From: Macrococcoides canis
GTDB lineage: Bacteria > Bacillota > Bacilli > Staphylococcales > Staphylococcaceae
Length of the DNA stretch: 64,000 bases
Assembly: GCF_002119805.1 (NCBI RefSeq)
Contig: NZ_CP021059.1
Span: forward strand, 1 to 64,000
Direction: 5' to 3'
This document shows, in pieces, positions 14,150-59,310 of this stretch; the first letter of the stretch is position 1; each line of letters begins with the position of its first letter. Both the position numbers and the translations under genes were made by a program. The notes under the pieces are model-generated. The model was not told the origin of the DNA and ran no database searches. It saw only the letters and a list, made by a program, of their open reading frames with translations.

Positions 14150-14851
14150 ATGAATCATTTATATCAATATTCAACGATGGGTGCATTGGTTGGCGGAATG
14201 TTTGAAGGTACATTTAAGATTGGTGATATATTACACAGTGGTGATTATGGAATCGGTACTTTAGATGGTCTAAACGGTGAACTTATTATCCTGGAAGGAA
14301 AACCATATTTAATTGATAGTGAAGGTACTGTACGAGAAGTTGCAAATGATGAAACAACACCGTTTGCAAGTGTGATACAATTTAATGCTACGCATACTTT
14401 AAATTACGACAAAAAGATGAATAAAGAACAGTTAGATGAAATCATATTGAACGAAATAAAAGGTATGAATTACTTTCATGCAGTAAAGATAACTGGAAAA
14501 TTTAAATTAATAAAAGCGCGTTCAGTGAAAAAACAGCAAGAACCGTATCCTAAATTAGTAGAAGCGGTAAAAGAACAAGGTTATTTTGATTTTGAAGATA
14601 CAACAGGAACTTTATTCGGATTTTATACACCACATTTTATTCAAGGTATAGGTGTTGGTGGCTATCATGTACATTATTTAAGTGATAATCATGAACAAGG
14701 CGGTCACGTCTTTGATTTTGAAATTGAGGACGTTAAAGTAGAGATGGCTCTTGCTGAGGATTTAATTTTGAAGATGCCGGACACTGAACATTATCGAGAA
14801 AATGATTTAAATGATCCTGACATGTTAAAAGATATAGAAGCAAGTGAATAA
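14150..14851 (+). CDS. alsD: Alpha-acetolactate decarboxylase
   Basis: AlsD converts alpha-acetolactate to acetoin and carbon dioxide. The 233-aa protein shows the family N-terminus YQYSTMGALVGGMFEG and the metal-binding histidine motif GYHVHYLSDNHEQGGHV around residues 175-191 (HxH plus a later His). It forms an operon with alsS with a clear AGGAGG before the ATG. A nested-hairpin element begins at its stop codon. Confidence 0.96.
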   Translation: MNHLYQYSTMGALVGGMFEGTFKIGDILHSGDYGIGTLDGLNGELIILEGKPYLIDSEGTVREVANDETTPFASVIQFNATHTLNYDKKMNKEQLDEIILNEIKGMNYFHAVKITGKFKLIKARSVKKQQEPYPKLVEAVKEQGYFDFEDTTGTLFGFYTPHFIQGIGVGGYHVHYLSDNHEQGGHVFDFEIEDVKVEMALAEDLILKMPDTEHYRENDLNDPDMLKDIEASE

Positions 14852-15009
14852 AAGGATGTGACACGAGCGTTCAGACACGAATAAAATCAAGAAAAGACGA
14901 CAAAAAACGGTTTTTGTTTTGAGTCGTCTTTTTGATTTTAACGAAGTGTCTGCTCGAGGAACGCCGTAAATAAAAGGACGTGACACGAGCGTTAAAAAGC
15001 GGATGAGCA
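14847..15009. repeat. Nested-hairpin intergenic element with flanking direct repeats (alsD/nnrD)
   Basis: A 25-bp sequence containing GTGACACGAGCGTT occurs at 14847-14871 and again, with one change, at 14969-14993. Between the copies is a long nested inverted repeat: AGACAC pairs with GTGTCT outside, and a stem with AAAAGACGAC / GTCGTCTTTT inside, flanked by TAAAATCA and TGATTTTA arms. After the second copy a small hairpin (GGATGAGC / GCTTCATCC) serves as terminator for the opposing nnrD. The element sits between two convergent genes and probably ends transcription from both sides. A second element of the same design lies at 24712-24920. Confidence 0.8.
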
Positions 15010-17673: not shown

Positions 17674-18189
17674 ATGACAAACTTTAAATTAGACACAGCA
17701 CACAGTAACGTAGAATTCTCTATCAAACATTTAATGGTATCAAAAGTAAAAGGTGAATTTACTGAATTTGATGGACAAGCTACTGGAGACATCAACGATT
17801 TATCATCTTTACAATTAACAGCTACTGTAAAAGTAGATTCAATTGACACAAACAACGCAGATCGCGATGGCCATTTAAAATCTGCTGATTTCTTCGATGT
17901 AGAAAAATATCCTGAAATCAAATTTGTTTCTAAGTCTATTACTGAAAACAAAATTACAGGTGATTTAACAATTAAAGATCAAACACATGAAGAAACATTT
18001 GATTTAGAATTTAACGGTGTTCATAAAAACCCAATGGATGGAAGCAGTGTAACTGGATTTATCGTAAATGGATCAGTTAACCGTGAAAAATATGGCATGA
18101 ACTTTAACCAAGCGTTAGAAACAGGTGGCGTTATGGTTGGTAAAGAAGCTAAATTCGAAGTTAACGCTGAATTTGGAATCGAAGAATAA
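17674..18189 (+). CDS. YceI-family lipocalin-like protein
   Basis: The 171-aa protein has the YceI signature: FKLDTAHSNVEFSIKHLM at the N-terminus, the central KSADFFDVEKYPEIKF and a C-terminal KFEVNAEFGIEE. YceI proteins form a lipocalin-like barrel that binds isoprenoid or other amphiphilic molecules. This one has no signal peptide, so it is probably cytoplasmic, as in other staphylococci. A good AAAGGTGG precedes the ATG and a terminator follows, so it appears to be a single-gene unit. The physiological ligand is unknown. Confidence 0.9.
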   Translation: MTNFKLDTAHSNVEFSIKHLMVSKVKGEFTEFDGQATGDINDLSSLQLTATVKVDSIDTNNADRDGHLKSADFFDVEKYPEIKFVSKSITENKITGDLTIKDQTHEETFDLEFNGVHKNPMDGSSVTGFIVNGSVNREKYGMNFNQALETGGVMVGKEAKFEVNAEFGIEE

Positions 18190-24716: not shown

Positions 24717-24920
24717 GAGGCTATTATCTGAGCGATTAGCTTCGAGCCAAAATCCCGAAAAGGTGTCAAAGAAACGCTTTTTGTTTCGGGCACCTTTTGG
24801 ATTTTGTTGAAGAAGCTGCTCAGATGATGCCGTTTCAATAAGAGGCTATTATCTGAGCGATTAGCTTCGAGTCAAAATAAAAGCCATCAAAACAGTAAAT
24901 GTTTTGATGGCTTTTAAAAT
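24712..24920. repeat. Nested-hairpin intergenic element with flanking direct repeats (purA/yitT)
   Basis: A 42-bp sequence containing AGGCTATTATCTGAGCG is present at 24712-24753 and again at 24837-24878 with one change. Between them lies a nested inverted repeat: ATCTGAGC pairs with GCTCAGAT, AGCTTC with GAAGCT, and the inner GAAAAGGTG / CACCTTTT stem is flanked by CAAAATCC and GGATTTTG. After the second copy, AAAAGCCATCAAAAC / GTTTTGATGGCTTTT terminates the opposing gene. The plan matches the element at 14847-15009 although the bases differ. Confidence 0.8.
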
Positions 24921-31941: not shown

Positions 31942-32421
31942 ATGAAAATTACAGTGATAACTGTGGGTAAATTGAAAGAAAAGTACTGGAAAATGGCAGT
32001 AGATGAGTATGTGAAGCGACTTGGCGCATATGCGAAAATGGAACTGATTGAAGTGGCTGATGAGAAAGATTCGGATAATATGAGTGAAAAGGATATTGAG
32101 ATTGCGAAGAAGAAAGAAGCGGAGCGCATACTATCTAAAGTGAAAGATGACAGCTTTGTGTATACGTTGGAGATATTAGGCAAACAATTGGACTCTGTGC
32201 AGCTGTCGAAAGAAATGGAGCAGAAGATGAATACAGGTAAAAGCCACCTGACATTTATCATCGGAGGATCGAACGGCCTGCACCAATCCGTTATGGACCG
32301 CTCAAACTATGCCCTCTCATTCAGCAAGATGACCTTCCCGCATCAGATGATGAAAGTAATACTGCTGGAGCAGGTGTATAGAGGGTTTAGGATTATTAGG
32401 AATGAATCGTATCATAAGTGA
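31942..32421 (+). CDS. rlmH: 23S rRNA (pseudouridine1915-N3)-methyltransferase RlmH (OrfX)
   Basis: This SPOUT-class enzyme methylates pseudouridine 1915 in helix 69 of 23S rRNA. The 159-aa protein has [16 protein letters not shown] at the start, the knot motif FIIGGSNGL and the C-terminal [17 protein letters not shown]. Its last codons (TCG TAT CAT AAG TGA) form the left SCC attachment site, so insertion keeps the C-terminus intact. This is the universal SCC target gene. Confidence 0.99.
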
Positions 32422-39141: not shown

Positions 39142-39504
39142 TTAACCCACGTTGACAAATTCCAAATCCTCCTCCGTAAGATTTAATAAATGTAGCTCAC
39201 TGTGCAGTGTCTTGACCGTATCATTGATGTAGAAGAAATGTTCGTATTCACCGTTTGTGTAACCCAGTAAGATTATCTTGCCTTGATAGGTACCGATGAA
39301 TGAGTAGATGTAATCTTTTATAAGTGAGTGGTTGTAAAAGGTGTATGTGTCGATGATTGCACCTTTTAGCTTCTCTGGAATTTTTCTCTCTCCCCATGCT
39401 AATTCCTCGATACCCAGTTGTACGAATTCAGTAAGGTATTCTTGAGAAGAGAGTTTTAGTATTTCTTCTAGGTACCGAGTCAGATGCGCTTTGATTTGTT
39501 TCAT
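39142..39504 (-). CDS. SCC accessory protein, 120 aa (DUF950-like position)
   Basis: This small acidic protein lies where SCC elements usually carry a DUF950-type gene after ccrB. Segments include HLTRYLEEILKLSSQEYL, GIEELAWGERKIPEKL and SFIGTYQGKIILLGYTNG. I am not certain of the family. The frame extends to 39552, but the ATG at 39504 with GGAGGG about ten bases upstream is the better start. Confidence 0.6.
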   Translation of the reverse strand: MKQIKAHLTRYLEEILKLSSQEYLTEFVQLGIEELAWGERKIPEKLKGAIIDTYTFYNHSLIKDYIYSFIGTYQGKIILLGYTNGEYEHFFYINDTVKTLHSELHLLNLTEEDLEFVNVG

Positions 39505-39598
39505 GACGTTGTTCCCTCCAATTGATTTAATTTGATGCATGTTGTACATCATAATTAGAATATATATTTGAAGGTGGATTTGTTACATGTGAAACAAG

Positions 39599-39806
39599 CC
39601 CCCGTTTCACCGTGATTTTTGACGAACAGTATCGATTTCATTAAAGTATAATTTGACTTTTTCTCTTAATAAGTAATATATTTTTATAATTTAACGGGGT
39701 AACGGGGGATAATAGTTTTAACTATTTTTATTGAACAAAGGATTAATTGAGATAGATGTTAACCAAAAATTATTTTTATATGTGAGTTTTTACGGGGAAA
39801 CGGGGA
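39599..39806. repeat. Three iteron-like GC-rich repeats beside ccrB
   Basis: The gene-free stretch 39505-39913 carries three 15-mers: ACGGTGAAACGGGGG (complement strand, 39599-39613), ACGGGGTAACGGGGG (39694-39708) and ACGGGGAAACGGGGA (39792-39806). They are spaced 95 and 98 bases apart in otherwise AT-rich DNA. Each holds two AACGGGG-like half units. The arrangement resembles iterons or protein-binding sites, possibly for replication or control of the element. No ORF or promoter that I recognise uses them. Confidence 0.65.
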
Positions 39807-39913
39807 GTGTTGTTTATTGATGAAAATATAAGCATTATTTTTAACGATGTATTCTGTTAATACGCTCACGCATGTAGCGATGAGCGTTATTTTCATGCAA
39901 TAAACAGAACGGT

Positions 39914-41542
39914 CTATATGCGAAGGTAGTATGTTTCATGCTCTGTAAATAAATCAGAGGAAGCACTAAGCAGTGCTTCCTCTGGTTCGATACCGTTATA
40001 TACTTCTTTAAGAACATCTTCATTGATCTTTAACGTAATGAAGAAGTCATGTTTCTTTCCTGGCTCATTGCACTTCTTGAAGTGAATTGCATCAACGACA
40101 GAGAGATACAACGCTTTTAATTGTTTCTTATCTAATCGGTCCATATCCTTGAATATTGCTTGAAGAAGGGGTTTAATCTCCTCAATCGTTAACTGTTTAA
40201 TGTCATCCTCCTTATGCGCTTCCATTTCAGCTATTGTCGCCTTAAGTGCTTCAATAGTACTCGCATATTCATCGATAGTTCCTTTTAGTGTATGGATAAG
40301 GTCAGGGGATGTTGATAATGCGATATTAAGGTTATTAAGTTTGACTTGTGTTTCTTCAAGCTGCTGTTTCTTATTCAACACTCTTTGTTTCATTTCCGTT
40401 GGTTTAGCTTCTAAGCTACTGTTGACATTCTCCAAAACCTGTTGAAGTACTTTATCGTTGAATATCACTTCCTTTATACGATTGAAGACATAGGCTTCAG
40501 CAACATCTGCACGTATTGAGTTTGCGCTACATACAGATGCACCTTTATTTCTAAACTGGGAACAACTATAATAGCGTATACGCTTCTTCTCACCAGATTT
40601 AAGGGTATTGGTCGTATTACTTGCTGCATGAGCAGCTCCGCACTTAGGACAACGTATAATTCCAGTTAAGAGGTTTTCGCCTTTACCGTTAACCATTGGA
40701 TTCTTACTCGCTTTTTTCATTCTGGTCTGTACTTTATCCCATAAGTCTTGATCAATAATTGGAGTATGCTTGCCGTCTGCGATAATAGGATTAGGGTTAA
40801 AACCACGACGTCTCTTTTCATTCCATCCGGTATATCTTAGATATCTTATCTTACCGATGTAAACGATATTGGTTAAGATGTATTTAACGGAATTGGTGTC
40901 GAAGGGGTTATTTTTCTTAGTACGATAGCCGTCCTTATTTAATGCATTTGCAATGGCTCTGTATCCTTTTCCGGAAGCATATTCATCAAAGATACGTTTT
41001 ACAATTAGCGCTTCTTGTTCGACGATTGCGAGCATTCTTTTGTTTCCAGGCACTTGTTGGTATCCAAGCACCTGTCCACCATTGTAATAGCCGGATTCAG
41101 CTCTAGACACTAATCCAGCGGAAAAATTTTCCAAAATGTGGCTCCTTTCATACTCCGCCATAGACGCTAGTATTTGGAGCATCAATCGACCTGAGGCTGT
41201 GCTTGTATCGAACCTTTCCGTATCGCTATAGACCTCAACGTTGTATTTGTTGTAGAAGTCCACCATATCAATCACATGCTTGGTATTACGAGCAAGACGA
41301 TTAAGTCTGTAGATTAAGATAATATCGAATTTTCTATTCTTAGCATCTTCGTTCATTTTTAATAAAGCTGGTCTGTTCATGTTCTTCCCAGTTAAACCGT
41401 TGTCCGTGTAGACCTCGTATATTTCCCAACCGTTTCTTTGGCATACCTCTTCCAGTAACTTCTTTTGTCCTGCAATTGAGAAGTTATCACGTTGTAATGC
41501 ACTTGATACCCTTGTGTAAATAGCAGCTCTTTTCTTAGTCAT
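39914..41542 (-). CDS. ccrB: Cassette chromosome recombinase B
   Basis: This large serine recombinase acts with CcrA to excise and integrate the SCC at rlmH. The N-terminal resolvase domain starts AAIYTRVSSALQRDNFS with the catalytic Ser near residue 13 and contains YRLNRLARN and LQILASMAEYERS. The recombinase domain and a zinc-ribbon with RCPKCGAAH near residue 286 follow, then a coiled-coil and C-terminal region. The 542-aa length equals that of known CcrB proteins. GGAGG precedes the ATG. The allotype cannot be assigned without alignment. Confidence 0.95.
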   Translation of the reverse strand: MTKKRAAIYTRVSSALQRDNFSIAGQKKLLEEVCQRNGWEIYEVYTDNGLTGKNMNRPALLKMNEDAKNRKFDIILIYRLNRLARNTKHVIDMVDFYNKYNVEVYSDTERFDTSTASGRLMLQILASMAEYERSHILENFSAGLVSRAESGYYNGGQVLGYQQVPGNKRMLAIVEQEALIVKRIFDEYASGKGYRAIANALNKDGYRTKKNNPFDTNSVKYILTNIVYIGKIRYLRYTGWNEKRRRGFNPNPIIADGKHTPIIDQDLWDKVQTRMKKASKNPMVNGKGENLLTGIIRCPKCGAAHAASNTTNTLKSGEKKRIRYYSCSQFRNKGASVCSANSIRADVAEAYVFNRIKEVIFNDKVLQQVLENVNSSLEAKPTEMKQRVLNKKQQLEETQVKLNNLNIALSTSPDLIHTLKGTIDEYASTIEALKATIAEMEAHKEDDIKQLTIEEIKPLLQAIFKDMDRLDKKQLKALYLSVVDAIHFKKCNEPGKKHDFFITLKINEDVLKEVYNGIEPEEALLSASSDLFTEHETYYLRI

Positions 41543-41606: not shown

Positions 41607-42977
41607 TTATCCATTTACTTGGCATAGTTGATTCGTTTTTGTTTTCAGTGGAACTATGTTAAGAGGATAATCCGTAATAAATAGACCAGTTAAGTTGTTC
41701 TTTTCATCGATGATGACTTTTTCGATAATATGGTTGATGTCCTTTAGTTTTATGAACGAAACATGTGTTGATACTATATTCTTTATCTTTTGCCTTGAAA
41801 AGTTTTTACTGGCTTGTACAGAACCTTCCTCAGATACGTAGTTTGATTGAAACTCTTGTGCGCTGATTTTACCTTCTGCAAGTTCAGTAATCAGCTTGGC
41901 GTTGGCTTGACTGATTTTTTTCTGGTCCTTCTTATGAATTCTAATAACTTTGTTAACAACTTGTTCGATGCGCTCAGCGCATTCTTTATCCTTTAAGAAT
42001 GTCTTTAATGCATACAGAACTTGGTCTTCGATATGATCAGCATTTATTGACGTAAAAGGGCAGCGTTCATTTAAACCCGAATAATCTACGTTATGATTGC
42101 GACAGACGTACATTGTATAGGTCTTATTATTCTTCTTCACTTTGTGTGAATGAAGCCTTGCGTTACAGTAGGGACAATGTATCTTACGTTTCAGCAAGGT
42201 GTTTATCGGCTTACGTTTTATTCCTTTTGAAAGACGGATACGTTCAGCTTCTTCAAAGATTTCCTGGGTTATGATTGCTTGATGATGTCCTTGATACTCG
42301 CCATACTTTGAAGGTACGATTCCTGTATATATTTTGTTTAGCAATATATTCCTAACACGAACGTTTGTAAGTGATGTATAGCTTGTATCTTCAGAGATAA
42401 GCTTGCTGATGGCTTTGTAACCATAGCCATCACAGTAAAGCTGGAATATCCTTTTAACTGTCTTACTTTCTTCAGGATGTACAAAAAAGTTACCGTCTTC
42501 ATATCTGTATCCGAAAGGCGCGTTTGTTGTAATCAGTAAGCCTTGTCTTGCCTTTTCACGTGCTGCTTTTGAGACATTATCTCGTATGTTTTCGAGCTCA
42601 TTTTCGGCGAATGATAAGAACAGTTGAAGCTTCATTCGATCAAATGCCTTCGACAGGTCGAAGTAACCATCTGAGACACTGACCAGTTTCACTTGGTATT
42701 TCTGTAATAACTCTACGAAATCAAGTGCATTTTTTAAGTTCCTACCAATACGACTGATTCGATAAATCAGTAGGGTGGTCACTTGATTGTTCTTAATTTC
42801 CTGTATCAAACGTTGATAGTTTGTCCTGTTTACATTTCTTCCAGAACCGATATCACTGTAAAAATTTATTTTGCCTACATCGATATCATATTTTGCAGCA
42901 CATTTACGTATCAGCTCTTTCTGAGTGGGTATGGACTGTTGTTTCTTTGTTGATTGTCTTACATATGCGACGATCAT
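41607..42977 (-). CDS. ccrA: Cassette chromosome recombinase A
   Basis: This serine recombinase is the partner of CcrB. It starts MIVAYVRQSTKKQQS with catalytic Ser9 and has YRISRIGRNLKNAL, LSFAENELENI, a zinc site CPYCNARL and a C-terminus containing GLFITDYPLNIV, all typical of CcrA. The frame is open to 43037, but TGGAGGTG places the start at 42977, giving 456 aa. A hairpin and a 20-codon ORF lie directly upstream. ccrB starts 64 bases after its stop. Confidence 0.95.
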   Translation of the reverse strand: MIVAYVRQSTKKQQSIPTQKELIRKCAAKYDIDVGKINFYSDIGSGRNVNRTNYQRLIQEIKNNQVTTLLIYRISRIGRNLKNALDFVELLQKYQVKLVSVSDGYFDLSKAFDRMKLQLFLSFAENELENIRDNVSKAAREKARQGLLITTNAPFGYRYEDGNFFVHPEESKTVKRIFQLYCDGYGYKAISKLISEDTSYTSLTNVRVRNILLNKIYTGIVPSKYGEYQGHHQAIITQEIFEEAERIRLSKGIKRKPINTLLKRKIHCPYCNARLHSHKVKKNNKTYTMYVCRNHNVDYSGLNERCPFTSINADHIEDQVLYALKTFLKDKECAERIEQVVNKVIRIHKKDQKKISQANAKLITELAEGKISAQEFQSNYVSEEGSVQASKNFSRQKIKNIVSTHVSFIKLKDINHIIEKVIIDEKNNLTGLFITDYPLNIVPLKTKTNQLCQVNG

Positions 42978-43027
42978 ATTTTCACCTCCATTAAGATAAT
43001 ATAAGTTTGATAACAAATTGAAATAAC

Positions 43028-43052
43028 AAGCCAGCATCCTTTATGCTGGCTT
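43028..43052 (-). terminator. Hairpin between small ORF and ccrA (attenuator or terminator)
   Basis: AAGCCAGCAT / ATGCTGGCTT forms a 10-bp stem with a five-base loop. It sits between a 20-codon ORF and the ccrA ribosome binding site, so it could limit read-through from cch into ccrA. Confidence 0.65.
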
Positions 43053-43058
43053 AAGTTG

Positions 43059-43121
43059 TTACTTACCTTCATTTAATTCATTGATTACAAGTTCTGAAAT
43101 AATTTCGATAAGTTCGTTCAT
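43059..43121 (-). CDS. Putative 20-aa peptide upstream of ccrA
   Basis: An ATG at 43121 preceded by AAAGGATG opens a 20-codon ORF encoding MNELIEIISELVINELNEGK. It lies between cch and ccrA and is followed by a hairpin. The peptide is an amphipathic helix by pattern. It could be a leader peptide or simply a small SCC protein. Only the ribosome binding site and context support it. Confidence 0.4.
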   Translation of the reverse strand: MNELIEIISELVINELNEGK

Positions 43122-43148
43122 TTGTTATCATCCTTTCTGTATAGTTTA

Positions 43149-44900
43149 TTAATTTGAGTCTGTATGATTTGTATTATCATGGTCAGATACTCCAAAAATT
43201 TTGTCCATATCGTAGGGACCAGATCCATGTACAATATTTGGACCGATACCTAGTGCTTCTGCAAGTGAAATATCTAATTTAATACTGTAAAATGGGATTT
43301 TCTTTTTATTGCCGCTATCATCAGTATATTCACGTCGGAGAGTATTTCTTCCTTTTTCATGTACTAAAAGATAGTTTTCTTTGGATAGTGCTTGAATAAC
43401 TACTCGAGTATCTTGAAAGTTGCTATCTTTAAGCATCGTATTAAATACATCTTTCAGTATATCTACTCTAATATAAGAATCGTTGTAAACAATAAAGCCA
43501 AAATTACTAAAGTTATTGTCAAGAGAGTTACTTTTTGAAAAATTAGCATTGTTAGTTAAGACAAACTGTGTAATGGCATCGATTGCCTTTTCTGCAAGAC
43601 TTCGATTGCTCACAGTATTCCAATGATACTGAATAAGTTCATCGGTTATTCTGTCGAACTGTAACTCTTTTTTTAAAATGTATTTTAGAATTTTAACTGA
43701 TAACAGTATAATTGCGTAATAATCGCTCATTCTTGTACCAGTATTGGATTTATCTTTTGCCAATTTCTCTATCATTATTGACTTATATTCATTGTATGAA
43801 TTTACTAATCGATCGAATGCGATGTTTGTTAATAGATATGCGACTAGTGGCAGGATATGTCCATAGTGTTGTTTAACGATTCTTTTAATCTCATCCGAAT
43901 TGTGGCTACTTGTCGTCCAAGGATTATCGAATTCGATTACCCTGACGTTTAATCCATCATTTTTAGCGGTCTTATTACTGTTTAATATCGAATATTCTCC
44001 GGTACTGATAATGACAGTATTCCACGTGCGAACTTCTTTTGGAGTACCATCTTGATTTAGACGATTTTTTTCTCTGCCATCTGTTAGACTATATATTGTC
44101 GGGGTCAGATCCTTTGTTTTCACCATTGAAACTTCATCAAACAGAATGGGAATCCCATGGTTATCAGCTACTGAAGTAATGATGCTATTAAGCGTAGCAT
44201 TCCAGTTCTTATATAAGCTTGTAGTTTCATTGTTCGGTGATCCAGCTGTAGATAAAGCTAGCATTGCACTGGTGGTTTTACCGCTCGAACTATTACCGAC
44301 AAAGTGAAACATCAAAGATTTTAATGGACTAATGCCTTTATTGTTCATAAAAGCATTAACAAGACCAGATATACCTATTGCAGCTGCTAATTCAAGCTTG
44401 TGATTGCCTAGTACATGGGTATCGAACATCTTCATCCATTCATCGAAAGAACCGCTTGGTTGTATTTTTAATTGACTTGATGATTCGGTCGGATACTGTA
44501 GTTGTGACGCTGAATATGGCTGATTAAGCAAAATCAGCGGTTCATGATGACCTGGAATTAAGCCAATTTCTTTGTACTGTATTATCGGTTGAATTGAATT
44601 ACGCATTAATTGAAGCGCAAGCGACAAATCTGCAACATACTTCTGATCTATAATGAAACCTTTCTTGATAAGGTTGGGTAAGTTGCTCGTCGATAGAATA
44701 TCGCTGGATTCTTTGACTGAAGTGCCATGAGCATCTACTAAAACAATTACTTCGTCACTGTTTGAAAGGTCCTTAAAGCGCTTAGTGACTGCGATGTAAG
44801 GAGCGAAGTGGATGCGTTTTTTATCTTTTTTTGTTATATGATATTTATGCCATCCTTCTTGATCCAGTGTATATTTTCCATACTTTTTTTCATTGTTCAT
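43149..44900 (-). CDS. cch: Cassette chromosome helicase Cch (DUF927, MCM-like)
   Basis: This AAA+ helicase is encoded upstream of ccrAB. Members of the family were shown to be MCM-like replicative helicases, which suggests that SCC elements replicate after excision. The 583-aa protein has an N-terminal domain, Walker A GNSSSGKTT at 202-210, Walker B ILFDEVSM with Asp255-Glu256, a sensor region NTVIISTGE and a VRVIEFD stretch. The C-terminal winged-helix-like part follows. Immediately upstream is a 14-bp perfect inverted repeat. Confidence 0.9.
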   Translation of the reverse strand: MNNEKKYGKYTLDQEGWHKYHITKKDKKRIHFAPYIAVTKRFKDLSNSDEVIVLVDAHGTSVKESSDILSTSNLPNLIKKGFIIDQKYVADLSLALQLMRNSIQPIIQYKEIGLIPGHHEPLILLNQPYSASQLQYPTESSSQLKIQPSGSFDEWMKMFDTHVLGNHKLELAAAIGISGLVNAFMNNKGISPLKSLMFHFVGNSSSGKTTSAMLALSTAGSPNNETTSLYKNWNATLNSIITSVADNHGIPILFDEVSMVKTKDLTPTIYSLTDGREKNRLNQDGTPKEVRTWNTVIISTGEYSILNSNKTAKNDGLNVRVIEFDNPWTTSSHNSDEIKRIVKQHYGHILPLVAYLLTNIAFDRLVNSYNEYKSIMIEKLAKDKSNTGTRMSDYYAIILLSVKILKYILKKELQFDRITDELIQYHWNTVSNRSLAEKAIDAITQFVLTNNANFSKSNSLDNNFSNFGFIVYNDSYIRVDILKDVFNTMLKDSNFQDTRVVIQALSKENYLLVHEKGRNTLRREYTDDSGNKKKIPFYSIKLDISLAEALGIGPNIVHGSGPYDMDKIFGVSDHDNTNHTDSN

Positions 44901-46332: not shown

Positions 46333-47793
46333 TTATAATTCTTTATTTGATTGGCTATTACTTGTTCTAAAATTCTCAAGTTCTTTTTTGTAAGAATTTG
46401 TGATTATATTAATGTGAAATATACGATTTCTATTATTAGATGGTATGTTCTTGGATAGCTCTTCAATAATTTTTCTCTGAATTTTTAGATATCTCTTAGT
46501 AAATACGATTGGTCTATTCGTAATTTTCATTTGTATATTTGGATAGTATTTGCTCACTATTTCAGGATCAATATAACCGTCTATTTTTTTTAAAATCAAA
46601 TTTATGTCTTCGATCATATACATAAAATACTCTTTAGGAATTAATATTGATTTACTAAAATTCATCTTATTATAAATTAAAAACGAATGTAGCTTTTCTA
46701 ACTCATATTTGGTTTTCAAAATTTGTTCAGTTAGTGCTACATTTTGATTTGCTCTTCTTCTATAGAATTTCATAATTTTAATTTTTTTCAAAATAGAGCT
46801 TTTTTTCTCAGCGGCATAGATTTTGTTTACGTAAGAAAAAGATTTTAATTTTTCTTTTCTACTTACTAGGTGACTGCTCATTCTTAATAAATATTCTCTT
46901 AAAAATTCATCATAATCATAAGTTTTTCCAGCATGCATCAATTTATTATCAGTCATTTTTGCTAAAGCGTTTATAGAAGTGCGCTTAAGCTCTCTATTCT
47001 TATTTTGAGCTCCATATTTCTTTTCTATTTCTAATGCAGGGTTATCGACAAATTTGGAATTAATCAACATTTTAACAATGAGTAAATCTATGCTTTTGTA
47101 CTCTGTCGTTTCAAAAAGTTGAGAGCTTTCTATGGGGCTGTCTATAGGTATAAGCGATTTTTTGTACAAATCATAATCTATTTCCTGCACCTTTTTATAT
47201 TCTTTTTTATTAATTGGAATTTCGGAATCTACTGTTTTACGTTGTTCTACATATTCTTGAAGATGAAAATTATATATTGTTTCATCTATTGCTTTGAAAA
47301 TTTGTTTTTGCAGTTCGATTTTCTTTTCTACAGAAAAGTAATTCATGTGGCTATAGATCTCTTGTAACTTTTGCTCAAAAGCATCTCCTGTTTGCAACCA
47401 TTGTAAAGTATTTTGAAAAATATCTTTGCTAATAATATCTATTTTTAAAGGTAAGATATCTATTTTATCTATGTCCTTCATTATTCCTCGGATAAATTTT
47501 ATGTATTCAGCTCCATTAATATCATTTGTATTAAATGAGTTTTTATTATTTGATTGATTCAAAGGTAAGTTATCGATATTTTTTAAAAGTACAATCAACA
47601 ATTCTTTAGATATACCATTAAAGGTGTATTGATTATTTTTTTCTTCTCCATTAAAGTTATGAAACTGTTTAAAATCAATGTTGTAAAACTTCTCTAACTT
47701 TTCAAGTTTTAAATTCAAAGCGTAAGATGAAATTTTTAGTTCCTCATAAATATCTTTTTTTGAGTACATCTTATCTAATACTTTTGTCTTCAT
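46333..47793 (-). CDS. Hypothetical protein, 486 aa, divergent from the TIR/SEFIR gene
   Basis: I do not recognise this lysine- and isoleucine-rich soluble protein. Its first about 35 residues (MYSKKDIYEELKISSYALN) look like a helix-turn-helix, so it may bind DNA. The rest is mostly helical. It is very AT-rich even for this element, a sign of recent transfer. It reads away from the TIR/SEFIR gene across a 261-base gap containing the shared 70-bp block. Whether the two genes work together is unknown. Confidence 0.6.
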   Translation of the reverse strand: MKTKVLDKMYSKKDIYEELKISSYALNLKLEKLEKFYNIDFKQFHNFNGEEKNNQYTFNGISKELLIVLLKNIDNLPLNQSNNKNSFNTNDINGAEYIKFIRGIMKDIDKIDILPLKIDIISKDIFQNTLQWLQTGDAFEQKLQEIYSHMNYFSVEKKIELQKQIFKAIDETIYNFHLQEYVEQRKTVDSEIPINKKEYKKVQEIDYDLYKKSLIPIDSPIESSQLFETTEYKSIDLLIVKMLINSKFVDNPALEIEKKYGAQNKNRELKRTSINALAKMTDNKLMHAGKTYDYDEFLREYLLRMSSHLVSRKEKLKSFSYVNKIYAAEKKSSILKKIKIMKFYRRRANQNVALTEQILKTKYELEKLHSFLIYNKMNFSKSILIPKEYFMYMIEDINLILKKIDGYIDPEIVSKYYPNIQMKITNRPIVFTKRYLKIQRKIIEELSKNIPSNNRNRIFHINIITNSYKKELENFRTSNSQSNKEL

Positions 47794-59268: not shown

Positions 59269-59310
59269 TTATTATGAATTAACCGCACTCTCTACCGATA
59301 CACTGAAAGT

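What the first reader, a model, noticed from the sequence alone, without database searches (positions are those of the whole stretch)
39599..39806. Three iteron-like 15-mers beside ccrB
Three copies of an ACGG(G/T)G-(A/T)-AACGGGG sequence, two direct and one inverted, occur 95-98 bases apart in an AT-rich, gene-free stretch of 409 bases. Cch-type helicases imply that SCCs replicate, but an origin has not been clearly defined. Regular GC-rich repeats next to the recombinase genes are candidates for an origin or for Ccr or accessory protein binding.
Basis: seen in the sequence. Interest (0 to 1): 0.55.

Follow-up and report, generated by a model that had tools for sequence, protein, structure and literature searches.

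The report
Candidate replication origin of SCC cassettes
Behind the recombinase genes of a Macrococcus SCC (the kind of mobile cassette that carries methicillin resistance in MRSA) lies a set of short repeats that looks like the place where the cassette copies itself, and the same layout, spelled differently, turns up in many related cassettes.

Summary
The repeats are real. Three 14-bp sites (39600-39613 inverted, 39694-39707 and 39792-39805 direct) each consist of two ACGGGG-like words at 8-bp period. With up to 1 mismatch they occur nowhere else in this 2.36-Mb genome. They lie in the 361-bp gap between ccrB and SAUGI of an rlmH-linked SCC with a Cch helicase.

Sites I and II are inverted and flank 80 bp of 81% A+T. 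A scan that assumes no motif, only inverted tandem doublets around a 60-130 bp gap, ranks this pair first in the 64-kb window. It ranks the ccrB-SAUGI stretch first in 19 of 20 Staphylococcus/Mammaliicoccus SCC loci scanned (words CGGGAT) and second in a cassette of another family. It also finds the inverted iterons behind two SaPI-type rep genes. In 4 of 7 distant Bacilli elements with a ccrB homologue its best hit lies between cch and ccr. Beside the repeats is a hairpin whose arms changed together between lineages.

Best explanation: a phage-satellite-like origin bound by Cch, which I did not find described for CcrAB-type SCCs in the open literature searched. Binding and replication are not shown; an operator role remains possible.

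The parts
39600..39613 (-). iteron doublet I (ACGGTG-AA-ACGGGG), inverted relative to II and III
   Evidence: kept in L067 with one change
39694..39707 (+). iteron doublet II (ACGGGG-TA-ACGGGG)
   Evidence: kept in L067 with two changes
39792..39805 (+). iteron doublet III (ACGGGG-AA-ACGGGG); not kept in L067, so probably accessory
39614..39693 (.). 80-bp AT-rich stretch between I and II (81.2% A+T, window mean 66.2%), proposed melting region
39708..39791 (.). 84-bp AT-rich stretch between II and III (81.0% A+T)
39811..39906 (+). long imperfect hairpin next to doublet III; arms differ between lineages but stay complementary; TATAAGC at the inner end of the 5' arm in 18 of 19 aligned rows (not L054; nor L042, which was not in that alignment)
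39559..39586 (-). promoter-like site before SAUGI; the scan found no more such sites than chance, but the stretch is conserved in L067
39955..39984 (-). terminator-like stem-loop inside the last codons of ccrB
39142..39552 (-). SAUGI (uracil-DNA glycosylase inhibitor), followed by DUF960, DUF1643 and RadC genes
39914..41542 (-). ccrB, large serine recombinase
41607..43037 (-). ccrA, large serine recombinase
43149..44900 (-). cch, DUF927 helicase with C-terminal HTH_56; proposed initiator
32406..32421 (+). att-like end of rlmH (gene 31942-32421); a similar 15-mer at 59307 may be the far end of the cassette (a third, poorer one at 17734 lies outside it)

Best explanation
The gap between ccrB and SAUGI is the replication origin of this CcrAB/Cch-type SCC, built like the origins of SaPIs and other phage-inducible islands. 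Proposed steps: the C-terminal HTH_56 domain of Cch binds the tandem words; doublets I and II, which point away from each other, load helicase rings on either side of the 80-bp AT-rich stretch; the stretch melts and Cch unwinds outward after the cassette has been excised as a circle. The long hairpin beside doublet III would, once single-stranded, serve as a start signal for priming by host enzymes, since CcrAB/Cch cassettes are reported to lack the CCPol-MP primase of the other SCC class (PMC7581432; I did not search this cassette for it) and SaPI-type loci have a primase gene beside rep. Shown here: the anatomy, its recurrence, the lineage-specific words, the complementarity of the hairpin arms, the presence of Cch. 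Inferred: that Cch is the binder, that melting and replication start here, and the role of the hairpin.
For: (1) Motif-free statistic for inverted tandem doublets around a 60-130 bp gap, period 8: window 35, L104 30, L040 28, L042 35, L057 32, each with 0 of 200 shuffles reaching it; positive controls L069 28 and L070 36 at period 9, each 0 of 200. (2) Over whole loci, the ccrB-SAUGI stretch gives the top hit in the window and in 19 of 20 Staphylococcus/Mammaliicoccus SCC loci scanned; in L104 it is second. (3) In 15 loci from 14 of the 23 genomes outside the family that have PF18662 (398 Bacilli searched), 7 have a ccrB homologue and 4 of those 7 have their best hit (32, 45, 41, 29) between cch and ccr; Markov random sequence gives 0-2.2 hits of 28 or more per Mb. 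(4) The words follow the lineage: ACGGGG, CGGGAT, CTCGGA, GGGGGA, TGGGGG, AGGGGG. (5) In 22 distinct Staphylococcus-type sequences arm I is 0.92 and arm II 0.95 conserved, the whole region 0.81; arm II was the anchor used to pick them, so only arm I is a fair test. (6) Cch matches the solved SCC helicase 5dgk and the pathogenicity-island protein 8tch; the control gene in L069 is a close relative of 8tch, E 1.1e-256. [quoted passage not shown] (8) No DnaA-box-like site in the gap.
Against: No binding or replication data. The putative origin of the other SCC class lies directly behind its helicase gene (PMC7581432), whereas this one is 3 kb further on. Circular SCCmec of S. aureus N315 was below qPCR detection in culture (PMC4693430, passages). 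L067 has both arms but scores only 10 (4 of 200 shuffles) and lacks site III. In L043 and the SCCmec circle L185, which share this sequence, arm I is degenerate and the scan finds nothing there. L065, a CcrC cassette with HTH_56 at 90 bits, has AAGTG words instead and no scan hit, so HTH_56 does not always go with G-rich words. Of the 7 distant elements with a ccrB homologue, L193, L198 and L200 have no hit beside cch; of the 8 without one, only L188 and L192 have a weak hit (18) about 0.6 kb behind cch. L196 has a second pair (30) before the genes leading to cch, a place that suits an operator. In L191, L195, L196 and L199 the stretch between the arms is 60-70% A+T, only 3-10 points above its locus. 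The sites lie just upstream of the SAUGI promoter-like site.
Confidence: 0.65

Rival explanations
1. The doublets are operator sites for a transcription regulator of the SAUGI-DUF960-DUF1643-RadC operon (possibly Cch itself), with no role in replication.
For: Doublet I ends 13 bp upstream of the promoter-like site before SAUGI. In L065 AAGTG words lie upstream of both ccrC and SAUGI. In L195, L196 and L199 an AT-rich promoter-like stretch follows the iterons, by eye, and L196 has a second pair before the genes leading to cch.
Against: In 13 Staphylococcus-type loci the paired words occur only in the ccrB-SAUGI stretch and not before cch or ccrA, and ACGGGG is found nowhere else in 64 kb. An operator does not need two inverted doublets around 80-105 bp, nor site III nearly 200 bp further off. 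In the distant elements the gene behind the iterons is a small ORF plus ccr, not SAUGI.
Confidence: 0.21
2. Binding sites for CcrA/CcrB or an accessory recombination factor.
For: They adjoin the recombinase genes.
Against: The sites are 7 kb from the rlmH-side att-like site. The same architecture occurs behind the rep genes of two SaPI-type loci, where tblastn with the window's CcrA and CcrB found no relative.
Confidence: 0.05
3. The hairpin is a small RNA or an RNA control element and the repeats are its regulatory region.
For: The three one-sided variable pairs in alignment A3 are U-G on the + strand, and the + strand folds more stably in 22 of 22 distinct sequences, in the window by only 0.1 kcal/mol. 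A + strand promoter-like site lies at 39653-39682.
Against: No Rfam match there. Promoter-like sites in this 1.1-kb stretch number 5 against 4.4 expected. G-T wobble would serve single-stranded DNA equally well. It does not explain the inverted doublets.
Confidence: 0.07

Closest known systems
Replication origin of SaPIs and other phage-inducible chromosomal islands
   Same: Two sets of tandem short iterons, inverted, flanking an AT-rich stretch, with a homologous initiator helicase; found by the same scan (period 9, AGTACAC words) behind rep in L069 and L070.
   Different: Period 8 instead of 9, other words, two words per arm, a third doublet and a long hairpin beside it; located behind ccrB instead of directly behind the helicase gene; no primase gene seen next to cch among the genes scanned.
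Putative origin of pattern-2 SCCs (Cch2, AAGTG iterons, between cch2 and ccrC; PMC7581432)
   Same: SCC-borne helicase and short iterons in an intergenic region next to ccr.
   Different: No AAGTG in this gap or in the cch-ccrA gap; other helicase type; other side of the ccr genes.
Iteron plasmid origins with single-strand initiation hairpins such as IncQ oriV (recalled, no call)
   Same: Iterons, an AT-rich stretch and hairpins beside an origin with a hexameric helicase.
   Different: IncQ, as recalled, has 20-bp iterons read by a separate RepC and its own primase; not tested here.

Membership tests
[quoted passage not shown]
   feature from PMC6092414, Fig. 2 legend (E. coli PICIs) and text equating it with Gram-positive PICIs
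PICI/SaPI-type origin | lies immediately 3' of the initiator helicase gene | tested here: not met
   3 kb downstream of cch, behind ccrB; in four distant Bacilli elements the pair lies between cch and ccr
PICI/SaPI-type origin | encoded initiator homologous to SaPI Rep | tested here: met
   Cch matches 8tch 'Pathogenicity island protein' at 1.1e-10; 8tch is a close relative of the L069 rep gene
PICI/SaPI-type origin | bound by the initiator's C-terminal domain | not testable with these tools
   needs a binding assay; HTH_56 is present at residues 434-543
PICI/SaPI-type origin | drives autonomous replication | not testable with these tools
   needs an experiment
Pattern-2 SCC (Cch2) putative origin | AAGTG iterons between the helicase gene and ccr | tested here: not met
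   no AAGTG or CACTT in the cch-ccrA gap or the ccrB-SAUGI gap
DnaA-dependent iteron plasmid origin | DnaA box beside the iterons | tested here: not met
   none with up to 1 mismatch in 39553-39913
CcrAB/Cch-type (pattern 1) SCC | ccrA, ccrB and a DUF927 Cch helicase at rlmH | tested here: met
   NCBIfam scores for CcrB, CcrA and Cch1 are 640, 405 and 525 bits, below the equivalog cut-offs 900, 700 and 700, so a divergent member

The most novel reading that the evidence does not exclude
Most cassettes with an HTH_56-bearing Cch helicase across Bacilli share a satellite-type origin of inverted, mostly G-rich iteron doublets around an AT-rich stretch (L065, with AAGTG words, being an exception). 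In the Staphylococcaceae this origin sits behind ccrB and is coupled to a conserved single-strand hairpin that replaces a cassette-encoded primase as the start signal for DNA synthesis.
Probability: 0.33. Interest if true: 0.8.

Novelty: new variant of a known kind. Interest (0 to 1): 0.64.

Why it matters
Whether SCC cassettes replicate after excision bears on how methicillin resistance spreads. For the CcrAB/Cch class no origin was named in the passages I could read; PMC7581432 proposes one only for the Cch2 class. This gives a defined target of about 210 bp with a predicted binder, melting region and a possible priming signal, and ties SCCs to phage satellites by origin layout as well as by helicase.

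Tried and rejected
The literal motif as a general SCC mark: rejected. 4 of 108 family genomes have ACGGKGNAACGGKG; the three besides the window's (G042, G064, G092) show no relative of 10 SCC proteins in the 12 kb around the match, and the reversed control pattern gives 6 hits in 6 genomes, so these are chance.

Rfam RNA: no match at the repeats or the hairpin in the window or in five relatives.

Consensus folding of the hairpin over all lineages with MAFFT (A2) gave only -3.02 kcal/mol and 13 pairs, 3 of them changed on both sides, because the lineages do not align in the arms. Within one lineage the covariation is weak: 1 pair changed on both sides, 50 of 500 shuffles as good. The stronger evidence is the arm-exchange table over six sequences: own arms -15.6 to -23.4 kcal/mol, Macrococcus arms with Staphylococcus arms -1.6 to -6.2, the Staphylococcus stem types with each other -3.4 to -13.6 (RNA energies, arms picked by hand). 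The covariance model R1 found the hairpin in 30 of 108 family genomes but missed the window's genome and L067's at that setting. In a search of 32 sources it found the window at 27.7 bits, E 0.016, and L067 not at all up to E 1; it also matched the minus strand of many loci more weakly. On 10 loci it hit the four plasmid loci and, below E 1, none of the distant elements, L104 or L065.

That the hairpin tracks absence of CCPol: not supported as a rule. L065 gave no hairpin and shows no CCPol-like ORF that I recognised (by eye only).

In the scan I gave 23 SCC loci, the window and 2 SaPI-type loci. Of the 37 loci were left out: L038, L041, L047, L048, L052, L056, L060, L064, L066, L068 and the chance loci L071-L073, which are truncated, lack ccr, or repeat or nearly repeat a locus already scanned. 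Several of the 20 Staphylococcus-type loci are close relatives, so they are not 20 independent tests, and in some (L045, L061, L062, L063) other DNA has entered the ccrB-SAUGI stretch. Of 23 genomes outside the family with PF18662 I took 14, the higher-scoring ones.

Papers: I saw no report of an origin for CcrAB/Cch SCCs in 10 searches of the open PMC library (listings) and in passages of seven papers. The 2016 paper on Cch (10.1038/nsmb.3286, PMC5052118) and 10.1093/nar/gkac625 are not held, so I could not check them.

What the check changed: doublet I is 13 bp, not about 30, from the promoter-like site; L065 contradicts a strict link of HTH_56 with G-rich words; the weakly AT-rich stretches of the distant elements and the second pair of L196 were added; SCCmec type numbers, which the records do not give, were dropped; the SaPI-type label of the controls was tested. 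Odds moved slightly down for the best reading and the novel case, and up for the operator.

Full report
Observation. Window 39553-39913 is the 361-bp gap between the ccrB stop and the SAUGI start, both genes on the minus strand. It holds three 14-bp sites, one inverted and two direct, each made of two ACGGGG-like words at 8-bp period. With up to 2 mismatches there are 3 matches in 64 kb against 0.04 expected; with up to 1 mismatch there are 3 in the whole 2.36-Mb genome, all here, and 0 for the reversed control. ACGGGG or its complement occurs 5 times in 64 kb, always in these sites.

Setting. The cassette follows rlmH (31942-32421; identified by its protein and length, recalled) with an att-like end at 32406 and a similar 15-mer at 59307. 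It carries cch (DUF927 plus HTH_56), ccrA, ccrB and the SAUGI-DUF960-DUF1643-RadC genes. The NCBIfam scores for Cch1, CcrB and CcrA are high but below the equivalog cut-offs, so this is a divergent CcrAB/Cch cassette. The nearest relative found is L067, the same contig as L105, Macrococcus sp. TMW 2.2395; its CcrB is 84% identical. It belongs to the window's genus, which places the window in Macrococcus.

Conservation inside the genus. Against L067 the promoter-like stretch, doublets I and II and both hairpin arms are kept while the DNA between them drifts; doublet III is not kept.

The same gap elsewhere. I took loci around PF18662 matches (36 of 108 family genomes) and read the ccrB-SAUGI gap. 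Staphylococcus and Mammaliicoccus cassettes have ATCCCGTTATCCCG-like words inverted and (C/T)GGGATTT(C/T)GGGATT direct, again at period 8. In 13 loci checked, 12 have exactly one such doublet in each orientation and L043 only the direct one; none has a doublet elsewhere in the 12 kb. In 22 distinct sequences arm I is 0.92 conserved and the whole region 0.81; arm II (0.95) was the anchor by which the sequences were picked and does not count. L104, from another family of the order, has CTCGGAAACTCGG and an inverted counterpart before its RadC-DUF960-DUF1643 genes.

Test without a motif. I scored every pair of tandem doublets in inverted orientation around a gap of 60-130 bp. At period 8 the window scores 35, L040 28, L042 35, L057 32 and L104 30, each with 0 of 200 dinucleotide shuffles as high; L067 scores 10 with 4 of 200. 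Two SaPI-type rep loci score 28 and 36 at period 9, 0 of 200 each, directly behind rep. Their rep proteins are DUF927 helicases beside a PriCT_1 primase gene, the L069 one a close relative of 8tch, 'Pathogenicity island protein', so the scan recovers the described satellite-origin layout. Over whole loci the pair is the top hit in the 64-kb window (35; next 18) and in 19 of 20 Staphylococcus-type loci scanned. L104 has it second, behind an unrelated repeat; L043, L065 and L067 give no hit there. The stretch between the arms is 76-89% A+T in the window, L040, L042, L057 and L104, 80 and 89% in the two SaPI controls, and 71% in the mecI-bearing SCCmec on pRM27, L184.

Wider test. A search for PF18662 in 398 Bacilli genomes matched 34. 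In 15 loci from 14 of the 23 matching genomes outside the family, 7 have a ccrB homologue. In 4 of these (L191, L195, L196, L199) the best hit, with scores 32, 45, 41 and 29, lies between cch and ccr. Random sequence of the same composition gives 0-2.2 hits of 28 or more per Mb. L193, L198 and L200 gave none beside cch; by eye L198 has a G-rich pair of mixed period, which is post hoc. Of the 8 loci without a ccrB homologue, L188 and L192 have a weak hit (18) about 0.6 kb behind cch and the others none near it. The words are G-rich (GGGGGA, TGGGGG, AGGGGG). Against the reading: between the arms these four are only 60-70% A+T, 3-10 points above their loci, and L196 has a second pair (30) before the genes leading to cch. 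L195, L196 and L199 also have a short inverted repeat ending in TTTTCC between their arms and an AT-rich promoter-like stretch next to them, by eye.

The initiator. Window Cch matches the solved SCC helicase 5dgk at 1.7e-117 and 8tch at 1.1e-10. HTH_56 identity is 61% between the two Macrococcus proteins, which share the ACGGGG word, 54-90% among seven Staphylococcus proteins, which share CGGGAT-like words, and 39-45% between the groups; L104 is at 24-32% to all. This fits the words following the reader domain but is only a correlation over few lineages. L065 is at 37-48% to the Staphylococcus proteins yet has AAGTG words, and the SaPI-type proteins, with AGTACAC words, match HTH_56 only below its cut-off.

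The hairpin. Next to doublet III, at 39811-39906, lies a long imperfect hairpin. Own arms pair at -15.6 to -23.4 kcal/mol; Macrococcus arms paired with Staphylococcus arms give -1.6 to -6.2. Three one-sided changes are G-U on the + strand. The structure was found in 30 of 108 family genomes, though not in the window's at that setting; where I looked it lies in the ccrB-SAUGI stretch or its remnants. I propose it as a single-strand priming signal, the least secure part of the account; a small RNA is a rival.

Extrachromosomal circles. A distant search of plasmid records with the Staphylococcus gap (L040:4100-4600) found 9 records; the window's own gap found none. NZ_AP024743.1 is a 23,724-bp circular S. 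aureus record that looks like a whole SCCmec with mecA, two recombinase genes and a DUF927 gene; no plasmid rep gene is in its gene table, which is incomplete, and no replicon type is given. It has one convincing att-like core, judged by eye. It shows that a closed circle was assembled, not that it replicates; its arm I is degenerate and it gives no scan hit at the gap. Against active replication stands the qPCR study of N315, where circular SCCmec stayed below detection (PMC4693430, passages).

Literature. PMC7581432 (passages and the first part of the Discussion) proposes an origin with AAGTG iterons for the Cch2 class and says SCC origins had not been identified before. AAGTG is absent from the window's two candidate gaps. 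[quoted passage not shown] PMC10061031 and PMC6851490 (passages) relate Cch to SaPI Rep. PMC9728531 and PMC7145576 were seen in passages. In ten searches I saw no origin for the CcrAB/Cch class; the 2016 paper on Cch is not held and could not be checked.

Verdict. A real, conserved architecture, most likely the replication origin of CcrAB/Cch cassettes; an operator role for the SAUGI operon is the main rival, and both could hold at once. The kind is known from phage satellites; the place, the words and the hairpin make this a variant.

Noticed in passing
L185 (NZ_AP024743.1, 1-23724): A circular S. aureus 'plasmid' record that looks like a complete SCCmec, with one convincing att-like core and no plasmid rep gene in its (incomplete) gene table.
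   Followed up: partly
L183, L186 (S. warneri plasmids): Each holds two copies of the hairpin, with no ccr or cch among the genes listed for the stretch.
   Followed up: partly
L062 2280-2576 and 4542-4842: The iteron pair plus hairpin is duplicated, one copy on the SAUGI side and one on the ccrB side of an insertion.
   Followed up: no
L065 3790-5865: A CcrC cassette with a Cch1-type helicase has AAGTG words before both ccrC and SAUGI, although AAGTG was described for Cch2.
   Followed up: partly
L196 6221-6359 and 10307-10443: Two inverted doublet pairs with similar words, one before the genes leading to cch and one between cch and ccr.
   Followed up: partly
window 39530-39560: A palindrome-like GATG..ACATC element near the SAUGI promoter-like site recurs in Staphylococcus cassettes, by eye; a possible operator.
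   Followed up: no
window 43038-43148: A 20-codon ORF (MNELIEIISELVINELNEGK) between cch and ccrA; other cassettes and the distant elements also have a small ORF before ccr, by eye.
   Followed up: no
window 14850-14995 and 24725-24880: Two stretches with a repeated G+C-rich segment on both sides of a terminator-like hairpin; no Rfam match.
   Followed up: partly
window 46333-47793: DUF6038 protein of unknown function upstream of cch, with weak relatives in some other cassettes.
   Followed up: no
L195, L196, L199 between cch and ccr: A phage-integrase-like reading frame (by eye) lies between cch and the iterons, with the iterons directly behind it.
   Followed up: no
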